A DNA stretch of 64,000 nt from Bryobacterales bacterium. GTDB taxonomy: Bacteria; Acidobacteriota; Terriglobia; Bryobacterales; Bryobacteraceae. Below the pieces are notes generated by a model. That model was not told the origin of the DNA, made no database searches, and worked only from the letters and a program-made list of their open reading frames with translations. Below, one piece after another: positions 39,572-64,000 of this stretch. The position numbers and the translations under genes were made by a program. How positions within the stretch are numbered: the first letter of the stretch is position 1; each line of letters begins with the position of its first letter. Location: assembly GCA_003164035.1 (NCBI GenBank), contig PLRS01000071.1, forward strand, positions 1 through 64,000. Reading direction: 5' to 3'.

Positions 39572-39644
39572 CTTTTCGGGGGACTCCTTTGACGATGCCA
39601 CCATCGACGGCATGGCCGTGCCGGTGATATATCTGGCCCGTTCG
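39569..39644 (-). pseudogene. displaced duplicate of the SDR gene 3' end
   Basis: This 76-bp stretch aligns to 40243-40320, the last codons and trailer of the SDR gene, in the same orientation at roughly 84 percent identity. It reads ERARYITGTAMAVDGGIVKG with one base lost, against ERASYITGTAIAVDGGIVKG in the intact gene. Differences in the AVDGGIVKG part are all synonymous. The match extends past the stop codon into GAAAAGCTC. Confidence 0.8.
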
Positions 39645-39682
39645 CGCCCGTGCCGGCGATTTCACCGGCCCGTTCGCCGGGG

Positions 39683-39895
39683 TCATGAAACCGAAGCTAG
39701 ATTCGCAGTTTGCCGGTCCAACTGAAGCAGGAGGCGCTGAATCGTTTTCACTTCGCGTTCCTCAAAGTACGGCTCGCCACATTGACCGCATACCCAGGCG
39801 GGAACTGCTTCCAAGGATAGATGATACCCTTTGCGGTCAATTTGGAAAGGCGCCCTACCTCTACGCATTTTCCCCTGGCAGTGCATGCATTTCAT
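39683..39895 (-). CDS. YgiT-type zinc-finger protein (MqsA-like antitoxin candidate)
   Basis: A 70-residue protein MKCMHCQGKMRRGRAPFQID with a second CxxC in VPAWVCGQCGEPYFEE, making the four-cysteine zinc site of YgiT/MqsA N-terminal domains. The C-terminal helix EREVKTIQRLLLQLDRQ follows. ATG 39895 overlaps the stop of the DUF4258 gene as ATGA. In this arrangement it is the probable antitoxin of the upstream DUF4258 toxin-like protein. Confidence 0.85.
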   Translation of the reverse strand: MKCMHCQGKMRRGRAPFQIDRKGYHLSLEAVPAWVCGQCGEPYFEEREVKTIQRLLLQLDRQTANLASVS

Positions 39896-40212
39896 GAAGG
39901 CCTCCTGATTCTGAACTCCGGATCCCATTCGGCTATCTCCGGAACGTACGCGGTAATGATGGCAAGGTATTCGCGTCTGGGAGCGCAGACCACGTGAATC
40001 TTTCGGCCGGCCTCGCCCACTCCCAACATCAGGCAGCTATGGCCGCGCACGTCCTCCGGGTAGTCCTCGATGATTTCTCCTCGCAAAACGACGCGGCGCA
40101 CCTCTCGCACACTAATCATTCTATCGGGGCGAGACATTTGCCTGACAGCGTGGGGAAGGAAAAGCAGTTTCTTCCTGGCGGCAGCGTTGATCAGGATCGC
40201 GATTTCGCTCAT
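39892..40212 (-). CDS. DUF4258 protein (toxin-like partner)
   Basis: A 106-residue DUF4258 protein: LPHAVRQMSRPDRMISVREV, then VLRGEIIEDYPEDVRGHSCLML and the C-terminal VVCAPRREYLAIITAYVPEIAEWD. DUF4258 proteins have a small RelE/BrnT-like alpha-beta fold and commonly pair with YgiT zinc fingers, so it is likely the toxin of a type II module; activity is not established. It starts 39 bp after the SDR stop and lies between the two copies of the SDR 3' end. Confidence 0.82.
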   Translation of the reverse strand: MSEIAILINAAARKKLLFLPHAVRQMSRPDRMISVREVRRVVLRGEIIEDYPEDVRGHSCLMLGVGEAGRKIHVVCAPRREYLAIITAYVPEIAEWDPEFRIRRPS

Positions 40213-40250
40213 TAGTCAGAAGCCTGCGATTAGCCGCGCCGGGAGCTTTT

Positions 40251-41042
40251 TCAATAGATTCCCTTCACGATGCCGCCATCCACCGCGATGGCTGTGCCGG
40301 TGATATAACTGGCGCGTTCGGAGGCTAGAAACACGACTAAGTTGGCGAACTCTTCCGGGCGGCCGATTCGGCCCAGCGGCACTTCGCGCGCCCAACGGGC
40401 TTCGATCTCCGCGGGCGAAACGTTTTGTTCGCGGGCCTGCTTTTGGGCCAGTTCCAGCAAGCGGCCGGTGGCGGTATAGCCGGGACAGACGCTATTCACC
40501 AGCACGTTGTAGGGGCCGTATTCGTTGGATAGCGATTTCACCAGGCCGCTGACGGCGCTACGCACCGAATTCGACAGGATCAGGCCGGCGACCGGCTGCT
40601 TCACGGTCATCGAGGTGATGGCCAGAAAGCGTCCCCAGCGGCGTTCCCGCATCGGCGGCAGCACGTGGCGGGCGAAGGAGACCGTCGAGAGCAGGTTCAG
40701 TTCGGTGGCGGCGCGCCAGTCTTCCATGGTGGTTTCGGTGAACGACTTGGAGGGCGGGCCGCCGGCGTTCGCTACGCAGATATCGATGCGACTGAAGCGT
40801 TCCAGCAGGTCGGCGACAAACCGCTCCACCTCGCCATCGAGCCTCACGTCCAAGGCCCGCGTGAAGACCTCCACGCCGGTTTCGCGGCGAATCTCGGCCG
40901 CGGTTTCTTCGAGAGTGGAAGCCGTGCGGGCGCACAGCGCCAGCCGCGTTCCCTCGCGCGCCAGCCCCAGCGCGACGGCCTTTCCCAGCCCCTGGCTGGA
41001 GGCGGCTACCACGGCCACCCGGTCCTTCAATCCCAAATCCAT
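40251..41042 (-). CDS. short-chain dehydrogenase/reductase (SDR)
   Basis: A 263-residue classical SDR. The NAD(P)-binding motif is SSQGLGKAVALGLA (a TGxxxGxG variant), NAG appears in CVANAGGPPS, and the catalytic region carries S in ITSMTVKQP but lacks the usual YxxxK: the expected segment reads LILSNSVRSAVSGLVKSL, with N/S at the Tyr position. The end SYITGTAIAVDGG is standard. It resembles the 3-oxoacyl-ACP reductase-like FabG group; loss of Tyr, as in some atypical SDRs, makes its activity uncertain. Its 3' end is duplicated at 39569-39644. Confidence 0.88.
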   Translation of the reverse strand: MDLGLKDRVAVVAASSQGLGKAVALGLAREGTRLALCARTASTLEETAAEIRRETGVEVFTRALDVRLDGEVERFVADLLERFSRIDICVANAGGPPSKSFTETTMEDWRAATELNLLSTVSFARHVLPPMRERRWGRFLAITSMTVKQPVAGLILSNSVRSAVSGLVKSLSNEYGPYNVLVNSVCPGYTATGRLLELAQKQAREQNVSPAEIEARWAREVPLGRIGRPEEFANLVVFLASERASYITGTAIAVDGGIVKGIY

Positions 41043-46361: not shown

Positions 46362-46940
46362 ATGATTGTATTAGATATGAAGTGGAGCTGCGGAACCGGC
46401 CGGGGGATGGAAGCGGTGGAAGGCGACATTACGCGCATCGCGGTGGATGCCATTGTCAATGCGGCGAATTCGGCGCTGGCCGGCGGCGGCGGCGTGGACG
46501 GCGCCATCCATCGCGCCGGCGGCCCGGAAATCATGCGCGAGCTGGATGAGCTCCGCCGCGTGACCGGCGGCTGCCCAACGGGTTCCGCGGTGGCGACCGG
46601 CGCGGGCCGCCTGCCGGCGCGCTTCGTCTTCCACTCCGTCGGCCCGATCTACCGCGGCGGCGAACGGGGCGAGCCGGACTTGCTGGCTTCCTGCTACCGC
46701 ACGTGTCTGAAGCTGGCCGAAGATCGCGGCCTATCGAGCCTCAGCTTCCCCGCCATCAGCACTGGCGTCTACGGCTACCCCATCCGGCCCGCCGCCGAAA
46801 TCGCCGTGCGGGAAGTGAAGGCACACCTGGAAAAAGCCGATGCCAGCCTGCAGCGCGTAGTCTTCGTCCTTTTCAGCCGCTCAGATTACAAGGTATATGC
46901 GCGGCTTCTGGAGCGGCTGCCGTCAATCCATGCGGAATGA
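46362..46940 (+). CDS. macro-domain protein (O-acetyl-ADP-ribose deacetylase-like)
   Basis: A macro domain of up to 192 residues: MEAVEGDITRIAVDAIVNAA then NSALAGGGGVDGAIHRAGG, the ADP-ribose-binding loop, and PAISTGVYGYPIRPAAEIA. The NAANSxLxGGGGVDGAIHxAGG block is the signature of MacroD-type hydrolases that remove acetyl or ADP-ribose groups. ATG 46362 gives the longest form, but ATG 46377 or 46407 leave more room from the divergent neighbour. Its last codons overlap the displaced 3' end of another gene. Confidence 0.9.
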   Translation: MIVLDMKWSCGTGRGMEAVEGDITRIAVDAIVNAANSALAGGGGVDGAIHRAGGPEIMRELDELRRVTGGCPTGSAVATGAGRLPARFVFHSVGPIYRGGERGEPDLLASCYRTCLKLAEDRGLSSLSFPAISTGVYGYPIRPAAEIAVREVKAHLEKADASLQRVVFVLFSRSDYKVYARLLERLPSIHAE

Positions 46941-46951
46941 AACCACCAGCC
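46918..46951 (-). pseudogene. displaced duplicate of the 3' end of the secreted-protein gene at 47937
   Basis: On the minus strand this reads RLVVSFRMD and stop, matching WLVVSFRMD and stop at 47932-47965. Of 34 aligned bases, 31 are identical; within the shared codons the changes are synonymous (CGC for CGA, GAT for GAC). It overlaps the 3' end of the convergent macro-domain gene. A TA pair and a large palindrome lie between the copies. Confidence 0.75.
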
Positions 46952-47014
46952 GCCGAAACCCTATGCCTGACGTGGTATTATTCCTCAGCTAAAATATTGG
47001 TGAGGGGCCCACAA

Positions 47015-47221
47015 ATGGGTTTAAGCACGGTCCAGGAAATCGAACGCGCCATAGGAGCGCTCATGCCGCAGGAGTTGGAAGAATTGTACTCATGGCTTGA
47101 CCAACACTGCCCGCAGCCCATCGACACTCGCGTCCAGTCCGATCTTGTCGCGGGCCGTCTCGACAAGGCCATTCTCCTCGCTTTGGACGACGAAAGGAAC
47201 GGTCGAGTCCAGCCGCTTTAG
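47015..47221 (+). CDS. small antitoxin of a RelE/ParE-type module
   Basis: A 68-residue helical protein, MGLSTVQEIERAIGALMPQE, with GAGGGG ribosome-binding bases before ATG 47015. The tail SDLVAGRLDKAILLALDDER, then NGRVQPL, is typical of short antitoxins encoded directly before ParE/RelE-like toxins. Its stop overlaps the toxin start as TAGTG. It should bind and neutralise the toxin; no DNA-binding domain is evident. Confidence 0.8.
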   Translation: MGLSTVQEIERAIGALMPQELEELYSWLDQHCPQPIDTRVQSDLVAGRLDKAILLALDDERNGRVQPL

Positions 47222-47499
47222 TGTTTTGGATGCGGCACCGCGCCACTGCCGGCTTTTGGAAGGAATACCGGGCGCTCCCGCAGGAAATCCGCAACCGGGC
47301 GGACGAAAGGTTTTCATTGCTGAAGGCCAACCAGCAGCACCATTCCCTGCAATTCAAGAAGCTGGGGGAGCGCCACGGTCAGGAAATCTGGTCGGCCCGC
47401 GTCACGTTAAACTATCGCGCCCTTGCAATCAAACGGACGGACGGATACCTGTGGTTTTGGATTGGTGGCCACGGCACCTACGATGCCCTGATCTCCTAA
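47221..47499 (+). CDS. RelE/ParE-superfamily toxin
   Basis: A 92-residue protein starting at GTG 47221. Pattern: FWKEYRALPQEIRNRADERF, then HHSLQFKKLGERHGQEIWSA, then RVTLNYRALAIKRTDGYLWF and WIGGHGTYDALIS. The closing WFWIGxHxxYDxLI is characteristic of this RelE/ParE branch. It likely cleaves mRNA on the ribosome or inhibits gyrase; which cannot be decided here. Co-translated with the preceding antitoxin. Confidence 0.85.
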   Translation: MFWMRHRATAGFWKEYRALPQEIRNRADERFSLLKANQQHHSLQFKKLGERHGQEIWSARVTLNYRALAIKRTDGYLWFWIGGHGTYDALIS

Positions 47500-47560
47500 G
47501 ATTCCGCCATGTTTCAAATAGGGTAAGTTTCGCATCATCCCCAGAAGGGTAAGGGCAAAT

Positions 47561-47918
47561 GTGGCGCACGCACTTCTGCGTGCCGCGTCGAGACTCCGAG
47601 TTTCTGAAGTCGCCCCGGCGGTTTTCTGGTGCTGAGGAAAATAGACTGACCCAACTGACGGGGACCGGCGCGGGGAGCCAGGTGGGACAGACGATCGGTT
47701 TTCGTCGTCTGTCAGGCGCGGGCGACGTGTCGAGGCCTGACAGACGACGAAAAACGATCGTCTGTCCCGTCTGTCCCACCTCTGGGTCGCCGAAACTGGC
47801 TCAACTCAAATTCCACTTCCACGACTTCAGGAGTTCGGAGACTCATCTCGACGCCCGCTGCCACTCGGCACAGCGTCGAGTAGAGACTCGACGCGGCACG
47901 CAAAAGTGCGTGCGCCAC
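47561..47918. repeat. 358-bp nested palindrome built of hairpin units
   Basis: Outer arms start GTGGCGCACGCACTTCTGCG at 47561 and end with the reverse complement at 47918, extending about 52 bp on the left. The right arm (47822-47918) carries an extra insertion of about 45 nt. Inner arms 47681-47717 and 47735-47780 pair over 37 bp, one having a 9-bp tandem duplication. Smaller hairpins (GCACGCA/TGCGTGC, GCGTCGAGT/ACTCGACGC) are nested in the arms. No ORF is supported. It ends 18 bp before the 3' end of the gene at 47937. Confidence 0.82.
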
Positions 47919-47936
47919 GGCGACAGTTCCATGCCC

Positions 47937-49061
47937 TCAGTCCATTCGGAATGAAACCACCAGCCAGCGATCGCCGCGCTTCTCCACTTCGAAGTGGAAC
48001 TCCGGACCGGAACCGAGATCGACGCTCTTCCTGGAAGCGCCGATTTGCTTCACGGTGAAAAACGGAATGCCGGACACGTTGGGTGGAATGCTCTGAACAA
48101 TCTGCCTGGCCACCTCAGCCGATCCACAATAGGCGAGGACGGCCGGATAGTCTCCTGCCTGAGCGTATTGGATTGCCCTGGCCACAGGCAATAGGTCGGG
48201 GAGATTATAGTCGTTGCCCACGAGGCGCACGCGGTCTCCCGAGAGATCATAGGAGTTGGTGGCGCAGAGGCTCGGGCTATCCCACGTGTCGACCGCCGAC
48301 CGCCAGCAATATGGCAAGCGGATGAGCGCCCCCTCGGTCCGAAGGCCCCGATTTGGGTCGGCGAGGTTCATTTCGCCCTCGATGCGGATGAGCCAGCTAA
48401 GCATGCCTGCATCCTGGAGGTTCCACTCATAGGCGGAGTAGGAAATACCCCCGCTCGGGCCGTTGCACCACGACGTATAAAACACGGCCAGAAAGCGTGG
48501 CCTGTTGGACGGACCTCGATGGAGGGGGAACAAGTCGAGACCGGCGCTCAATCCAGCGGCCATAGAGCGACGGCTGTCTGCCGCCGCGAGATCGTGCCAT
48601 AGACTGACGGGCGTGTTCTCGTCGACCTCCGGGTGGGCAAAGTACGAAAACGTCGCCCAGTTACGAAATGTCATCTTCACCAGCAGCCCGGGCGGCAACT
48701 CGATCACTTTGAATTGGAAGCGTCTGTCTTCCGGCCAACCCTTATTGGCCTCCGCGCTTACGCCCTGCAGTTGTCGAAGCGCCGCCGTGGCACGTGAGGG
48801 CGCAGCGGACGGCGACGCGATGGGGCTCTCATTTAGCTTCGCAACCACCGCCTTATCCGCTTCATTGAAAATACGAAACTCGAGATCGCTCCGGCCGCTG
48901 AGATCCGGGTTCTGCCAGTCGCAAGGGTCGGCCGGTGCGGAGGCAATCTTCTTCAGAAGACTCTCGAAGGTCGGCAGCGGCTCGGGCGGCCGCTGGCCTT
49001 GGGCCGCTGCCCCGGCGGCCGCCAGCAACGCCAGCAGGAATCGCATGGACATCCTATTCAC
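47937..49061 (-). CDS. secreted hypothetical protein
   Basis: A 374-residue protein with a Sec signal peptide (MRFLLALLAAAGAAAQGQ). The mature part is rich in aromatic residues, for example VFYTSWCNGPSGGISYSAYE, and contains several cysteines; family not recognised. The C-terminus EKRGDRWLVVSFRMD suggests an NTF2- or SnoaL-like strand end, but this is only an impression. Its 3' end is duplicated at 46918-46951. Confidence 0.75.
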   Translation of the reverse strand: MNRMSMRFLLALLAAAGAAAQGQRPPEPLPTFESLLKKIASAPADPCDWQNPDLSGRSDLEFRIFNEADKAVVAKLNESPIASPSAAPSRATAALRQLQGVSAEANKGWPEDRRFQFKVIELPPGLLVKMTFRNWATFSYFAHPEVDENTPVSLWHDLAAADSRRSMAAGLSAGLDLFPLHRGPSNRPRFLAVFYTSWCNGPSGGISYSAYEWNLQDAGMLSWLIRIEGEMNLADPNRGLRTEGALIRLPYCWRSAVDTWDSPSLCATNSYDLSGDRVRLVGNDYNLPDLLPVARAIQYAQAGDYPAVLAYCGSAEVARQIVQSIPPNVSGIPFFTVKQIGASRKSVDLGSGPEFHFEVEKRGDRWLVVSFRMD

Positions 49062-61945: not shown

Positions 61946-61955
61946 GTGCTGCATT

Positions 61956-62014
61956 TAACGGCTCAGATCCTGGTCTTTGACGATATCGGAGAGTTGCTTA
62001 CGGACGTAGACGAA
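61956..62014 (-). pseudogene. displaced duplicate of the hslU 3' end
   Basis: The 59-bp stretch aligns to 63240-63298 in the same orientation with 52 identical positions. It encodes [18 protein letters not shown] followed at once by a stop. The protein is identical to intact HslU over 18 residues, while six codons differ synonymously. The intact gene continues YIL after this. It looks like the tail of a different hslU allele. Confidence 0.85.
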
Positions 62015-62054
62015 CGTTCGCCGGTGATTGGAGTGGCTATCCCCTGACAGGCTC

Positions 62055-63197
62055 TTAGACCCGCTCCAGGGCTGCGCTTAAGTCGTCGATCAGGTCGTCC
62101 AGGTCTTCCAACCCTACCGAAATGCGGATCAAATTGGGCGAGAGTCCCATGCGCTCGCGAACCTCGGCGGGGACGGAGGCATGTGTCATACTGACCGGGT
62201 GTTCGATGAGCGACTCGACTCCGCCCAGCGACTCGGCCAGGGTGAAGATGCGCACGCCGGCCAGCATCTGAAATGCGGCCTCCTGTCCTCCTCGAACGCG
62301 AAATGAGAAGGTTCCTCCATAGCCGCGCATCTGTTCGAGGGCCAGCCCGTGCTGGGGATGCGACGGGAGGCCGGGGTGCAGCACGGACTCGATTTTCGGG
62401 TGGCGGCTGAGCCATTGGGCCACGGCCAGGCCATTGCGGTTGTGCTCTTCCATCCGCAGCGCCAGCGTTTTGATGCCCCGCAGCACCAGGAAACAGTCTT
62501 GCGGCCCGGCGCAGGTGCCCAGAGCGTTTTGCAGAAAGCCGATGCGCTCGGCCAGGTCCGCACGATTCACCATGGCCGCGCCGCCGACTACGTCGGAATG
62601 GCCGTTGATGTATTTGGTGGTGGAGTGGACCACGATGTCGATTCCGAATTCGAGCGGGCGCTGAAAATAGGGCGAGAGAAACGTGTTATCGCAAATGGCC
62701 AGGGCGCCGTGCCGGTGAGCCGCATCCGCGGTTTGCTTCAAATCCACCAGGTTCATCAAGGGATTGGTGGGCGACTCGATCCACACCGCCGCGGCCCCTT
62801 CCGCCAGCGCGGCTTCGAGAACATCCCTGTCACGCAGGTCGATGTAACGGGCGCGTATTCCCTTGCTCCGGAAGGCGGTTTCGAACAGCCGATAGGTGCC
62901 GCCGTACAGGTCGTTATGCACCAGGATGGTATCGCCCGACTGGAATAACATCACCAGCGTGGTTTCGGCCGCCATGCCGGTGCCGAATGCGAATCCGGCG
63001 GCGCCGCCTTCGAGCGCGGCCAGGCACTCTTCGAGCGCCTTGCGGGTGGGATTGCCGCTGCGGGAGTAGTCGAAGGCGCCGGGCTGGCCGACGGCGCGGA
63101 AGGCGAACGTGGAGGTCTGGTAAATGGGGGTCATCACGGCGCCCTGGTGGTCGAGGCTGCGATGGCCGGCGTGGATGGATAGAGTTTTGAAATTCAT
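62055..63197 (-). CDS. cystathionine gamma-synthase / gamma-lyase family PLP enzyme
   Basis: A 380-residue Cys/Met-metabolism PLP enzyme. Motifs include TPIYQTSTFAF, DYSRSGNPTRKALEECLA, FGTGMAAETT, ESPTNPLMNLVD, CDNTFLSPYFQRPLEFGID and the PLP lysine in VVHSTTKYINGHSDVVGGA. It handles cystathionine, either making it from an acylated homoserine plus cysteine or cleaving it; the two cannot be told apart here. The gene lies 32 bp after hslU and is enclosed by the two copies of the hslU 3' end. Confidence 0.92.
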   Translation of the reverse strand: MNFKTLSIHAGHRSLDHQGAVMTPIYQTSTFAFRAVGQPGAFDYSRSGNPTRKALEECLAALEGGAAGFAFGTGMAAETTLVMLFQSGDTILVHNDLYGGTYRLFETAFRSKGIRARYIDLRDRDVLEAALAEGAAAVWIESPTNPLMNLVDLKQTADAAHRHGALAICDNTFLSPYFQRPLEFGIDIVVHSTTKYINGHSDVVGGAAMVNRADLAERIGFLQNALGTCAGPQDCFLVLRGIKTLALRMEEHNRNGLAVAQWLSRHPKIESVLHPGLPSHPQHGLALEQMRGYGGTFSFRVRGGQEAAFQMLAGVRIFTLAESLGGVESLIEHPVSMTHASVPAEVRERMGLSPNLIRISVGLEDLDDLIDDLSAALERV

Positions 63198-63229
63198 CGG
63201 AGGAAAAGCCGGTTGACAGACACCGGCCG

Positions 63230-64000
63230 CTATAGAATATAACGGCTCAGGTCCTGGTCCTTGACGATATCGGAAAGCTGCTTGCGGACATAGACGGAAT
63301 CGACCTTGACGCTTTTCTTTTTCAGGTCGGGGCCTTCGAAGGAAATCTCTTCCAGCAGTTTTTCCATGATGGTGTGGAGGCGGCGGGCGCCGATATTTTC
63401 CGACGACTGGTTCACCTGGGCGGCGAAGCGGGCTACTTCCTCGAGCGCATCGTCGGTGAGCGTGAGCTTGATGCCTTCGGTTTCGAGCAGGGCGGTGTAT
63501 TGCTTCGACAGGGCGTTCTTGGGCTCCTTCAAAATGCGAATGAAGTCCTCCACGGTGAGCGATTTGAGCTCGACGCGAATGGGAAATCGGCCCTGCAGCT
63601 CCGGGATCATATCGCTGGGCTTGGAGACGTGGAAGGCGCCGGCGGCGATGAACAGAATATGGTCGGTGCGCAGGAAGCCGTGGCGGGTATTGACGGTGGT
63701 GCCTTCGACGATGGGCAGGATGTCGCGCTGCACGCCCTCGCGGCTCACGTCCGGCCCGTGACCGGCTTCGCGGCCGGCGATTTTGTCGATCTCGTCCAGA
63801 AAAATGATGCCATTCGATTCCACGCGTTCGAGAGCCTGGCGTGTCACCTGATCCATATCGATCAGCTTCTGCTCTTCTTCCTGCACCAGGTAATCGAGCG
63901 CTTCGGCCACGCGCATTTTACGGCGGCGGGTTTTCTGGTTGAACAGATTGGGCAGCATGTCCTTCAGATTGATGCCCATCTCTTCGATGCCGGCGTTGGT
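63230..64000 (-). CDS. hslU: HslU, ATPase subunit of the HslUV protease (3' part)
   Basis: The C-terminal 256 residues are visible; the gene continues beyond the window edge. Present are the intermediate-domain end ([20 protein letters not shown]), Walker [14 protein letters not shown], the sensor region [20 protein letters not shown] followed by [12 protein letters not shown], and the arginine-containing [20 protein letters not shown]. It ends DLSRYIL, the tail that docks into HslV. HslU unfolds substrates for the HslV peptidase. Its last 59 bp are repeated at 61956-62014. Confidence 0.96.

What the first reader, a model, noticed from the sequence alone, without database searches (positions are those of the whole stretch)
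46918..47965. Secreted-protein tail echo encloses a RelE/ParE-type TA pair and a 358-bp palindrome
46918-46951 and 47932-47965 match at 31 of 34 bases, both encode LVVSFRMD plus stop on the minus strand, and the codon differences are synonymous. Between them lie the antitoxin, the toxin and a nested palindrome that abuts the intact copy. The displaced tail also overlaps the end of the macro-domain gene.
Basis: partly seen in the sequence, partly recalled or inferred. Interest (0 to 1): 0.75.

Follow-up and report, generated by a model that had tools for sequence, protein, structure and literature searches.

The report
Toxin-antitoxin insertion flanked by duplicated gene tail
A small toxin-antitoxin gene pair appears to have jumped in between two overlapping genes and left a second copy of one gene's tail behind, and the same scar is found around many other such pairs in related bacteria.

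Summary
In detail: 46918-46951 and 47932-47965 match at 31 of 34 bases, both read LVVSFRMD-stop, and occur nowhere else in the 8.0-Mb genome. Best reading: the scar of an insertion with long target duplication. A segment carrying a ParE_like toxin-antitoxin (TA) pair entered the overlap of two convergent genes and the overlap was duplicated, so both genes kept their ends. The local empty site could not be shown: the secreted gene is in 5 of 237 genomes and beside macro only here. The main result is that the pattern recurs: 17 of 97 ParE_like TA loci and 6 of 29 DUF4258 loci in the family have flanking direct repeats, against 4 of 126 shifted controls. Relatives show empty sites at three loci; at one (L228), and on one side of another (L141), the displaced copy is clearly the decaying one. 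A DUF4258/YgiT pair in this same window (39582-40320) has the scar too. It is not TA-only: a Cys/Met enzyme gene, a ferritin gene and 2 of 11 RAYT loci also show it. The 358-bp palindrome is a separate nested REPIN-like element. Long target duplication is known for restriction-modification systems.

The parts
46377..46940 (+). Macro-domain gene; its last codons and stop lie in the duplicated segment
   Evidence: PF01661 E 9e-43; relatives' matches mostly end at residues 174-185 and their C-terminal tails vary
46918..46951 (-). Left direct repeat: displaced tail (LVVSFRMD-stop) of the secreted gene
   Evidence: 31/34 identity to 47932-47965, two places in the genome
46952..47931 (.). Inserted segment between the repeats, 980 bp (622 bp without the palindrome)
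47015..47221 (+). Antitoxin gene, 68 aa
   Evidence: a homologue (30-79% identity) lies beside the toxin in 21 of 29 relatives' loci; no Pfam or NCBIfam match
47221..47499 (+). ParE-like toxin gene, 92 aa
   Evidence: PF24732 E 3e-7; matches in 115 of 237 family genomes, own included
47561..47918 (.). Nested palindrome: inner repeat pair inside an outer REP pair (REPIN-like)
47932..47965 (-). Right direct repeat: tail of the intact secreted gene
47937..49061 (-). Intact secreted-protein gene, 374 aa, no known family
39582..39644 (-). Second case in the window: displaced tail of an SDR gene
   Evidence: 84% over 64 bp to 40257-40320
39683..39928 (-). YgiT-type zinc-finger antitoxin-like gene of the second case
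   Evidence: TIGR03831 E 3e-10
39892..40212 (-). DUF4258 toxin-like gene of the second case
   Evidence: PF14076 E 9e-23
40257..40320 (-). Right repeat of the second case, tail of the intact SDR gene
40251..41042 (-). Intact SDR gene whose tail is duplicated
   Evidence: PF13561 E 3.5e-54
61953..62012 (-). Third case in the window, no TA: displaced copy of 63237-63296 (3' part of the gene that starts at 63230 and runs past the window end); a Cys/Met PLP enzyme gene (62055-63197) lies between
   Evidence: 88% over 60 bp; PF01053

Best explanation
The echo is the scar of an insertion with long target duplication. Before it, the macro gene and the secreted-protein gene were convergent and overlapped by about 18 bp. 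A segment of about 0.6 kb carrying little more than the ParE_like TA pair entered this overlap, and 34 bp of target were duplicated, so that one copy ends the macro gene and the other ends the secreted gene. Both genes stayed intact, which is why the insertion was tolerated. A REPIN-like element, of a kind spread by RAYT enzymes, later landed in the insert or came with it. Shown here: the repeats, their uniqueness, recurrence at two unrelated TA families, empty sites at three other loci, and decay of the displaced copy at L228 and on the U32 side of L141. Inferred: that this locus arose the same way, the order of events, and the tolerance argument. How the duplication is made (staggered break and fill-in, template switching, or one-sided recombination with a homologous donor) is not resolved. 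TA addiction may help keep such repeat-flanked inserts from being deleted (inferred).
For: 17 of 97 ParE_like TA loci have flanking direct repeats of 44.6-287 bits, then a gap down to 29.2; inverted repeats at these loci reach 27.4 at most; 4 of 126 shifted positions reach 44.6 (Fisher p=3e-4). 150 permuted flank pairs, made when 59 loci were in hand, reached 30.1. DUF4258 loci: 6 of 29, permuted maximum 31.9. Both together 23/126 versus 4/126, p=1.4e-4; macro-gene control 0 of 29, maximum 40.1. None of the 23 repeats proved a dispersed element in the 2.25 Mb held: hits outside the locus itself were orthologous genes or short pieces. Empty sites: G219, G221, G224 for L228; G086, G097, G100, G101 for L141; G053, G049 for L179. 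At L228, 5 of 6 differences are changes in the displaced copy and the sixth, past the gene, is in the attached copy. At L141 the U32 gene's own tail is closer than its echo to 7 of 7 relatives. In L141 the neighbours are also convergent and overlap (read). Inserts are often close to TA size: 11 of 23 are 573-785 bp.
Against: No empty site or ortholog adjacency exists for this locus. TA may not be the cause: 2 of 11 RAYT loci also have flanking direct repeats, and own-genome cases hold a Cys/Met enzyme gene, a ferritin gene and a 264-aa gene. On the GT side of L141 own tail and echo are about equally close to relatives, and at L179 the own tail is only slightly closer, so decay of the echo is not shown there. 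Over nine gene-tail cases 38 of 61 differences fall at third codon positions, more than the 46% I assume for simple duplication plus decay (p=0.008; L205 and L208 among the nine are one event), so some repeats may be diverged homologous alleles. Six of the 17 ParE_like repeats (L214, L139, L178, L200, L198, L153) could not be tied to a gene tail. No shared motif was seen at the insert ends.
Confidence: 0.75

Rival explanations
1. One-sided recombination with DNA of a relative (homology-facilitated illegitimate recombination): the incoming DNA carried a homologous gene tail plus the TA; the attached tail is the donor's, the echo is the old native tail.
For: Differences favour third codon positions (38 of 61), most at L166 (11/16), L176 (5/7), L205 (4/4). 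Here both codon differences are synonymous. At L179 the order of segments, with a second copy of a neighbouring stretch, fits a donor stretch joined inside the gene.
Against: At L228, where relatives allow polarity, 5 of 6 changes are in the echo, as expected for a decaying duplicate; the U32 side of L141 points the same way.
Confidence: 0.2
2. The echo is the last remnant of a tandem copy of the secreted gene (old gene duplication, then deletion), unrelated to the TA pair.
For: Would also give a gene tail as a direct repeat; the secreted gene is broken up in two genomes, G020 and G225.
Against: The same scar recurs at 23 of 126 TA loci beside different neighbour genes, and empty sites show single tails without a second gene copy.
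Confidence: 0.04
3. The direct repeats are a dispersed repeat or attachment site of a known mobile element.
For: The genome is rich in REPs and has 12 Y1_Tnp matches.
Against: The 34-mer occurs at two places only; repeats of different loci are not copies of one another; 17 own-genome REPIN loci showed no such flanking repeat, best 24 of 34.
Confidence: 0.01

Closest known systems
Insertion with long target duplication of restriction-modification systems (Nobusato et al. 2000 and Furuta et al. 2010, seen only as cited in PMC3874152 and PMC3031569)
   Same: Addictive gene unit inserted with long and variable duplication of target, in the order of 100 bp, inferred from comparison of related genomes (passages read)
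   Different: Here the inserts are TA pairs of two families in one bacterial family, often at gene tails, with diverged copies; [quoted passage not shown]
ParE_like (PF24732) type II TA module
   Same: Toxin domain hit above cut-off, small upstream gene overlapping it
   Different: The 68-aa antitoxin has no named family; toxicity untested
REP/REPIN elements with RAYT transposases; REP families as in PMC3733652
   Same: About 34-bp palindromic unit, 95 copies at up to 3 mismatches, variable loop, many in inverted pairs; the outer unit flanks Y1_Tnp genes L101 and L106, the inner unit L099
   Different: Two families nested in one another. Whether the unit belongs to the GTAG or CGTC class of that paper was not tested; the paper reports no link of CGTC families to transposase genes (passages)

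Membership tests
Insertion with long target duplication | Direct repeats of target sequence flank the insert | tested here: met
   34 bp, 31/34, unique; elsewhere aligned lengths of 33-266 bp
Insertion with long target duplication | Empty site with a single copy in a related genome | tested here: inconclusive
   Shown for L228, L141, L179; not available for the window locus
Insertion with long target duplication | Length varies between insertions, target not shared | tested here: met
   Lengths; repeats of different loci are not copies of one another. The L141 site is also occupied in G151 (L164)
Type II TA, ParE_like | Toxin domain match | tested here: met
   PF24732, 30.8 bits against cut-off 24.4
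Type II TA, ParE_like | Adjacent antitoxin kept with the toxin | tested here: met
   Antitoxin homologue found in 21 of 29 relatives' loci
Type II TA, ParE_like | Toxicity neutralised by the antitoxin | not testable with these tools
   needs expression in a laboratory strain
REPIN / RAYT | High-copy palindromic unit, many in inverted pairs | tested here: met
   95 copies, control 0
REPIN / RAYT | RAYT gene flanked by the same unit | tested here: met
   L101, L106 (outer unit), L099 (inner unit) on both sides

The most novel reading that the evidence does not exclude
TA pairs of at least two unrelated families act as minimal mobile units of about 0.6 kb: they insert without a transposase, duplicate tens to hundreds of bases of target, choose or survive mainly at gene 3' ends and overlapping convergent genes, and their addiction keeps the repeat-flanked state from being deleted, even across a species split (L205/L208).
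Probability: 0.3. Interest if true: 0.8.

Novelty: new variant of a known kind. Interest (0 to 1): 0.55.

Why it matters
How TA pairs move without transposases is, to my knowledge, open. Here nearly one in five tested TA loci of two families in one bacterial family carries a readable scar, some with an empty site in a relative, so the insertion point, the duplicated length and the exact insert can be read off. That extends to TA pairs a mode known for restriction-modification systems, and makes two ideas testable: that the duplication lets genes enter overlapping neighbours without damage, and that addiction protects direct-repeat-flanked DNA from deletion.

Tried and rejected
Ortholog adjacency of the secreted gene: none beside macro in what was fetched. 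Macro to E1 synteny: where both tables list a genome, the two genes mostly lie on different contigs, so the neighbourhood is not conserved. A TA downstream of macro in G220 (L042) was considered as a sign that macro-TA adjacency is old; the toxin there is only 47% identical and the nearest homologues of the window's toxin (about 74%) lie on other contigs than macro, so I took it as coincidence, not proven. Rfam at gathering scores over 46800-48100: nothing. PADLOC, four proteins: nothing. I first favoured the donor-allele model because of the synonymous differences; polarity at L228 and on one side of L141 turned me to duplication plus decay.

Limits of the counts. The 100 relatives' and own-genome TA loci are the next-best consecutive rows after the window, not a random set; with the window 101 were in hand and 4 were dropped for flanks under 150 bases. 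Shifted controls needed flanks of 500 bases, TA loci only 150. L205 and L208 are one orthologous insertion, so independent cases are one fewer. The L141 site is also occupied in G151 (L164: TA 90% identical, next to the same U32 gene, other side cut by the contig end), which counts among the 80 negatives. The bit threshold was set after seeing the gap between 44.6 and 29.2. Of 30 DUF4258 loci fetched (62 rows listed) one was dropped for a missing flank; a YgiT-like finger was seen beside 5 of the 6 positives, not L344. In that call the window's own case aligned over 33 bp only; 64 bp. The nine own-genome cases were picked by hand from 31 low-copy repeats among 69; in one of them (ferritin) neither copy lies in a called gene; my gene calls are a simple hexamer score, not a standard gene finder. 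Of four shifted controls over the threshold one (L161) is itself a tail echo.

Papers. Searches on TA with target duplication, direct repeats or illegitimate recombination. In the listings (titles and starts of abstracts) I saw no report of TA insertion with long target duplication, but I did not read most of the listed papers, subscription papers are missing and Furuta 2010 was not held. Passages only were read of PMC2654758, PMC3874152, PMC3031569 and PMC3733652.

Full report
The observation. They occur at two places only in the whole genome even with three mismatches allowed, and shuffled flanks gave at most 25 of 34. On the minus strand both read LVVSFRMD and stop; two differences are synonymous and the third lies past the stop. 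The macro gene's stop and the echo's stop overlap by 18 bp on opposite strands.

The parts. The macro gene is PF01661; the toxin is PF24732 ParE_like; the small upstream gene has no named family but a homologue lies beside the toxin in 21 of 29 relatives' loci. The secreted protein has no known family and has matches in 5 of 237 genomes of the same family, in two of them as broken pieces. Judging by equal contig lengths, two of those genomes are the Bryobacterales and Acidobacteriaceae MAGs, so the family is probably Bryobacteraceae (inference, name recalled).

The palindrome. The 358-bp palindrome belongs to dispersed repeats: the search with the whole 1,066-bp region gave 99 matches in the genome, those other than itself falling in the palindrome and its edges. 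The outer arm is itself a hairpin with 95 copies at up to 3 mismatches and none in the reversed control, many in inverted pairs. The genome has 12 Y1_Tnp matches; the outer unit flanks those of L101 and L106 and the inner unit that of L099. It is a nested REPIN-like element, explained without the echo. In G039 a related TA pair also has the outer unit downstream.

The wider pattern. Testing TA loci of relatives for direct repeats between their left and right flanks gave an unexpected result. With 59 loci 11 had strong repeats; with 97 loci 17 had, against 4 of 126 shifted positions in the same loci. One of these four controls (L161) is itself a tail echo, of a 458-aa gene (hemG-like from recall, not tested), around a 264-aa gene. 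A second, unrelated family (DUF4258, mostly with a YgiT finger beside it) gave 6 of 29, with a seventh at 38 bits. One of the six lies in this window: 39582-39644 and 40257-40320, the tail of an SDR gene, flank the pair at 39683-40212. Macro genes as control gave 0 of 29, best 40 bits. None of the repeats proved a dispersed element in the 2.25 Mb held.

Gene tails. In many cases the repeat reaches the stop codon of a long neighbour gene: L141, L228, L179, L166, L176, L181, the window, and L318; in L205 and L208 it ends 16 bp before. In L161 it lies inside the gene near the end, in L150 apparently at a gene start; six ParE_like cases (L214, L139, L178, L200, L198, L153) are not tied to a gene tail.

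Empty sites and polarity. G219, G221 and G224 lack the TA and have a single tail where G226 (L228) has tail, TA, tail. G086, G097, G100 and G101 have one tail region where G099 (L141) has two around the TA. G053 and G049 lack the TA segment of L179. At L228, 5 of the 6 differences are changes in the displaced copy. At L141 the U32 gene's own tail is closer than its echo to 7 of 7 relatives, but on the GT side own tail and echo are about equal; at L179 the own tail is only slightly closer. So the displaced copy is a decaying duplicate at L228 and on one side of L141; elsewhere this is open. L205 and L208 are one insertion shared by two species, and the L141 site is also occupied in G151.

Against. 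Third codon positions hold 38 of 61 differences over nine cases. That exceeds 46%, my own rough expectation for duplication followed by decay (p=0.008), so diverged donor alleles may be involved at some loci. The effect is not TA-only: a Cys/Met enzyme gene (61953-63296), a ferritin gene, and 2 of 11 RAYT loci show it. In 864 kb of the own genome, nine hand-picked structures cover 9,411 bp, about 1.1%; 4 of the 9 hold a TA or antitoxin gene (ParE_like twice, DUF4258/YgiT once, UPF0175 once), and a fifth is a repeat of part of a UPF0175 gene.

What is known. Restriction-modification systems insert with long, variable target duplications, in the order of 100 bp (passages of PMC3874152 and PMC3031569). 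[quoted passage not shown] My searches showed no report for TA pairs in the listings seen; that is not proof of absence.

Verdict. The finding is most likely the scar of a known kind of insertion, seen here around TA pairs with unusual frequency. The local proof (empty site) is missing; the class is well supported; TA-specificity is not shown.

Noticed in passing
window 39582-40320: Second TA-like pair (DUF4258 plus YgiT finger) flanked by a duplicated SDR tail, same architecture as the finding
   Followed up: yes
window 61953-63296: A Cys/Met PLP enzyme gene lies between a gene (63230 onward) and a 60-bp displaced copy of its 3' part; no TA involved
   Followed up: partly
L161 1087-2324 (own genome C136): Tail of a 458-aa gene duplicated around a 264-aa gene of no known family; a UPF0175 gene and a repeat of part of it follow
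   Followed up: partly
L236 12269-13145 (own genome C49): 186-bp direct repeat (87%) around a UPF0175 gene
   Followed up: partly
L099, L101, L106: Y1_Tnp (RAYT) genes flanked by the inner or outer units of the palindrome
   Followed up: partly
L095, L103: Two RAYT loci with flanking direct repeats (263 bp at 81%, 50 bp at 94%)
   Followed up: no
L042 2043-2589: In G220 a distant homologue of the TA pair also sits directly downstream of the macro gene
   Followed up: partly
L164 259-1554 and L141 4436-5481: G151 and G099, placed in different genera, have a 90% identical TA beside the same U32 gene
   Followed up: partly
L181 2777-2827 and L318 1812-1875: TA pairs of different families in two genera both sit at an SDR gene tail of similar sequence
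   Followed up: no
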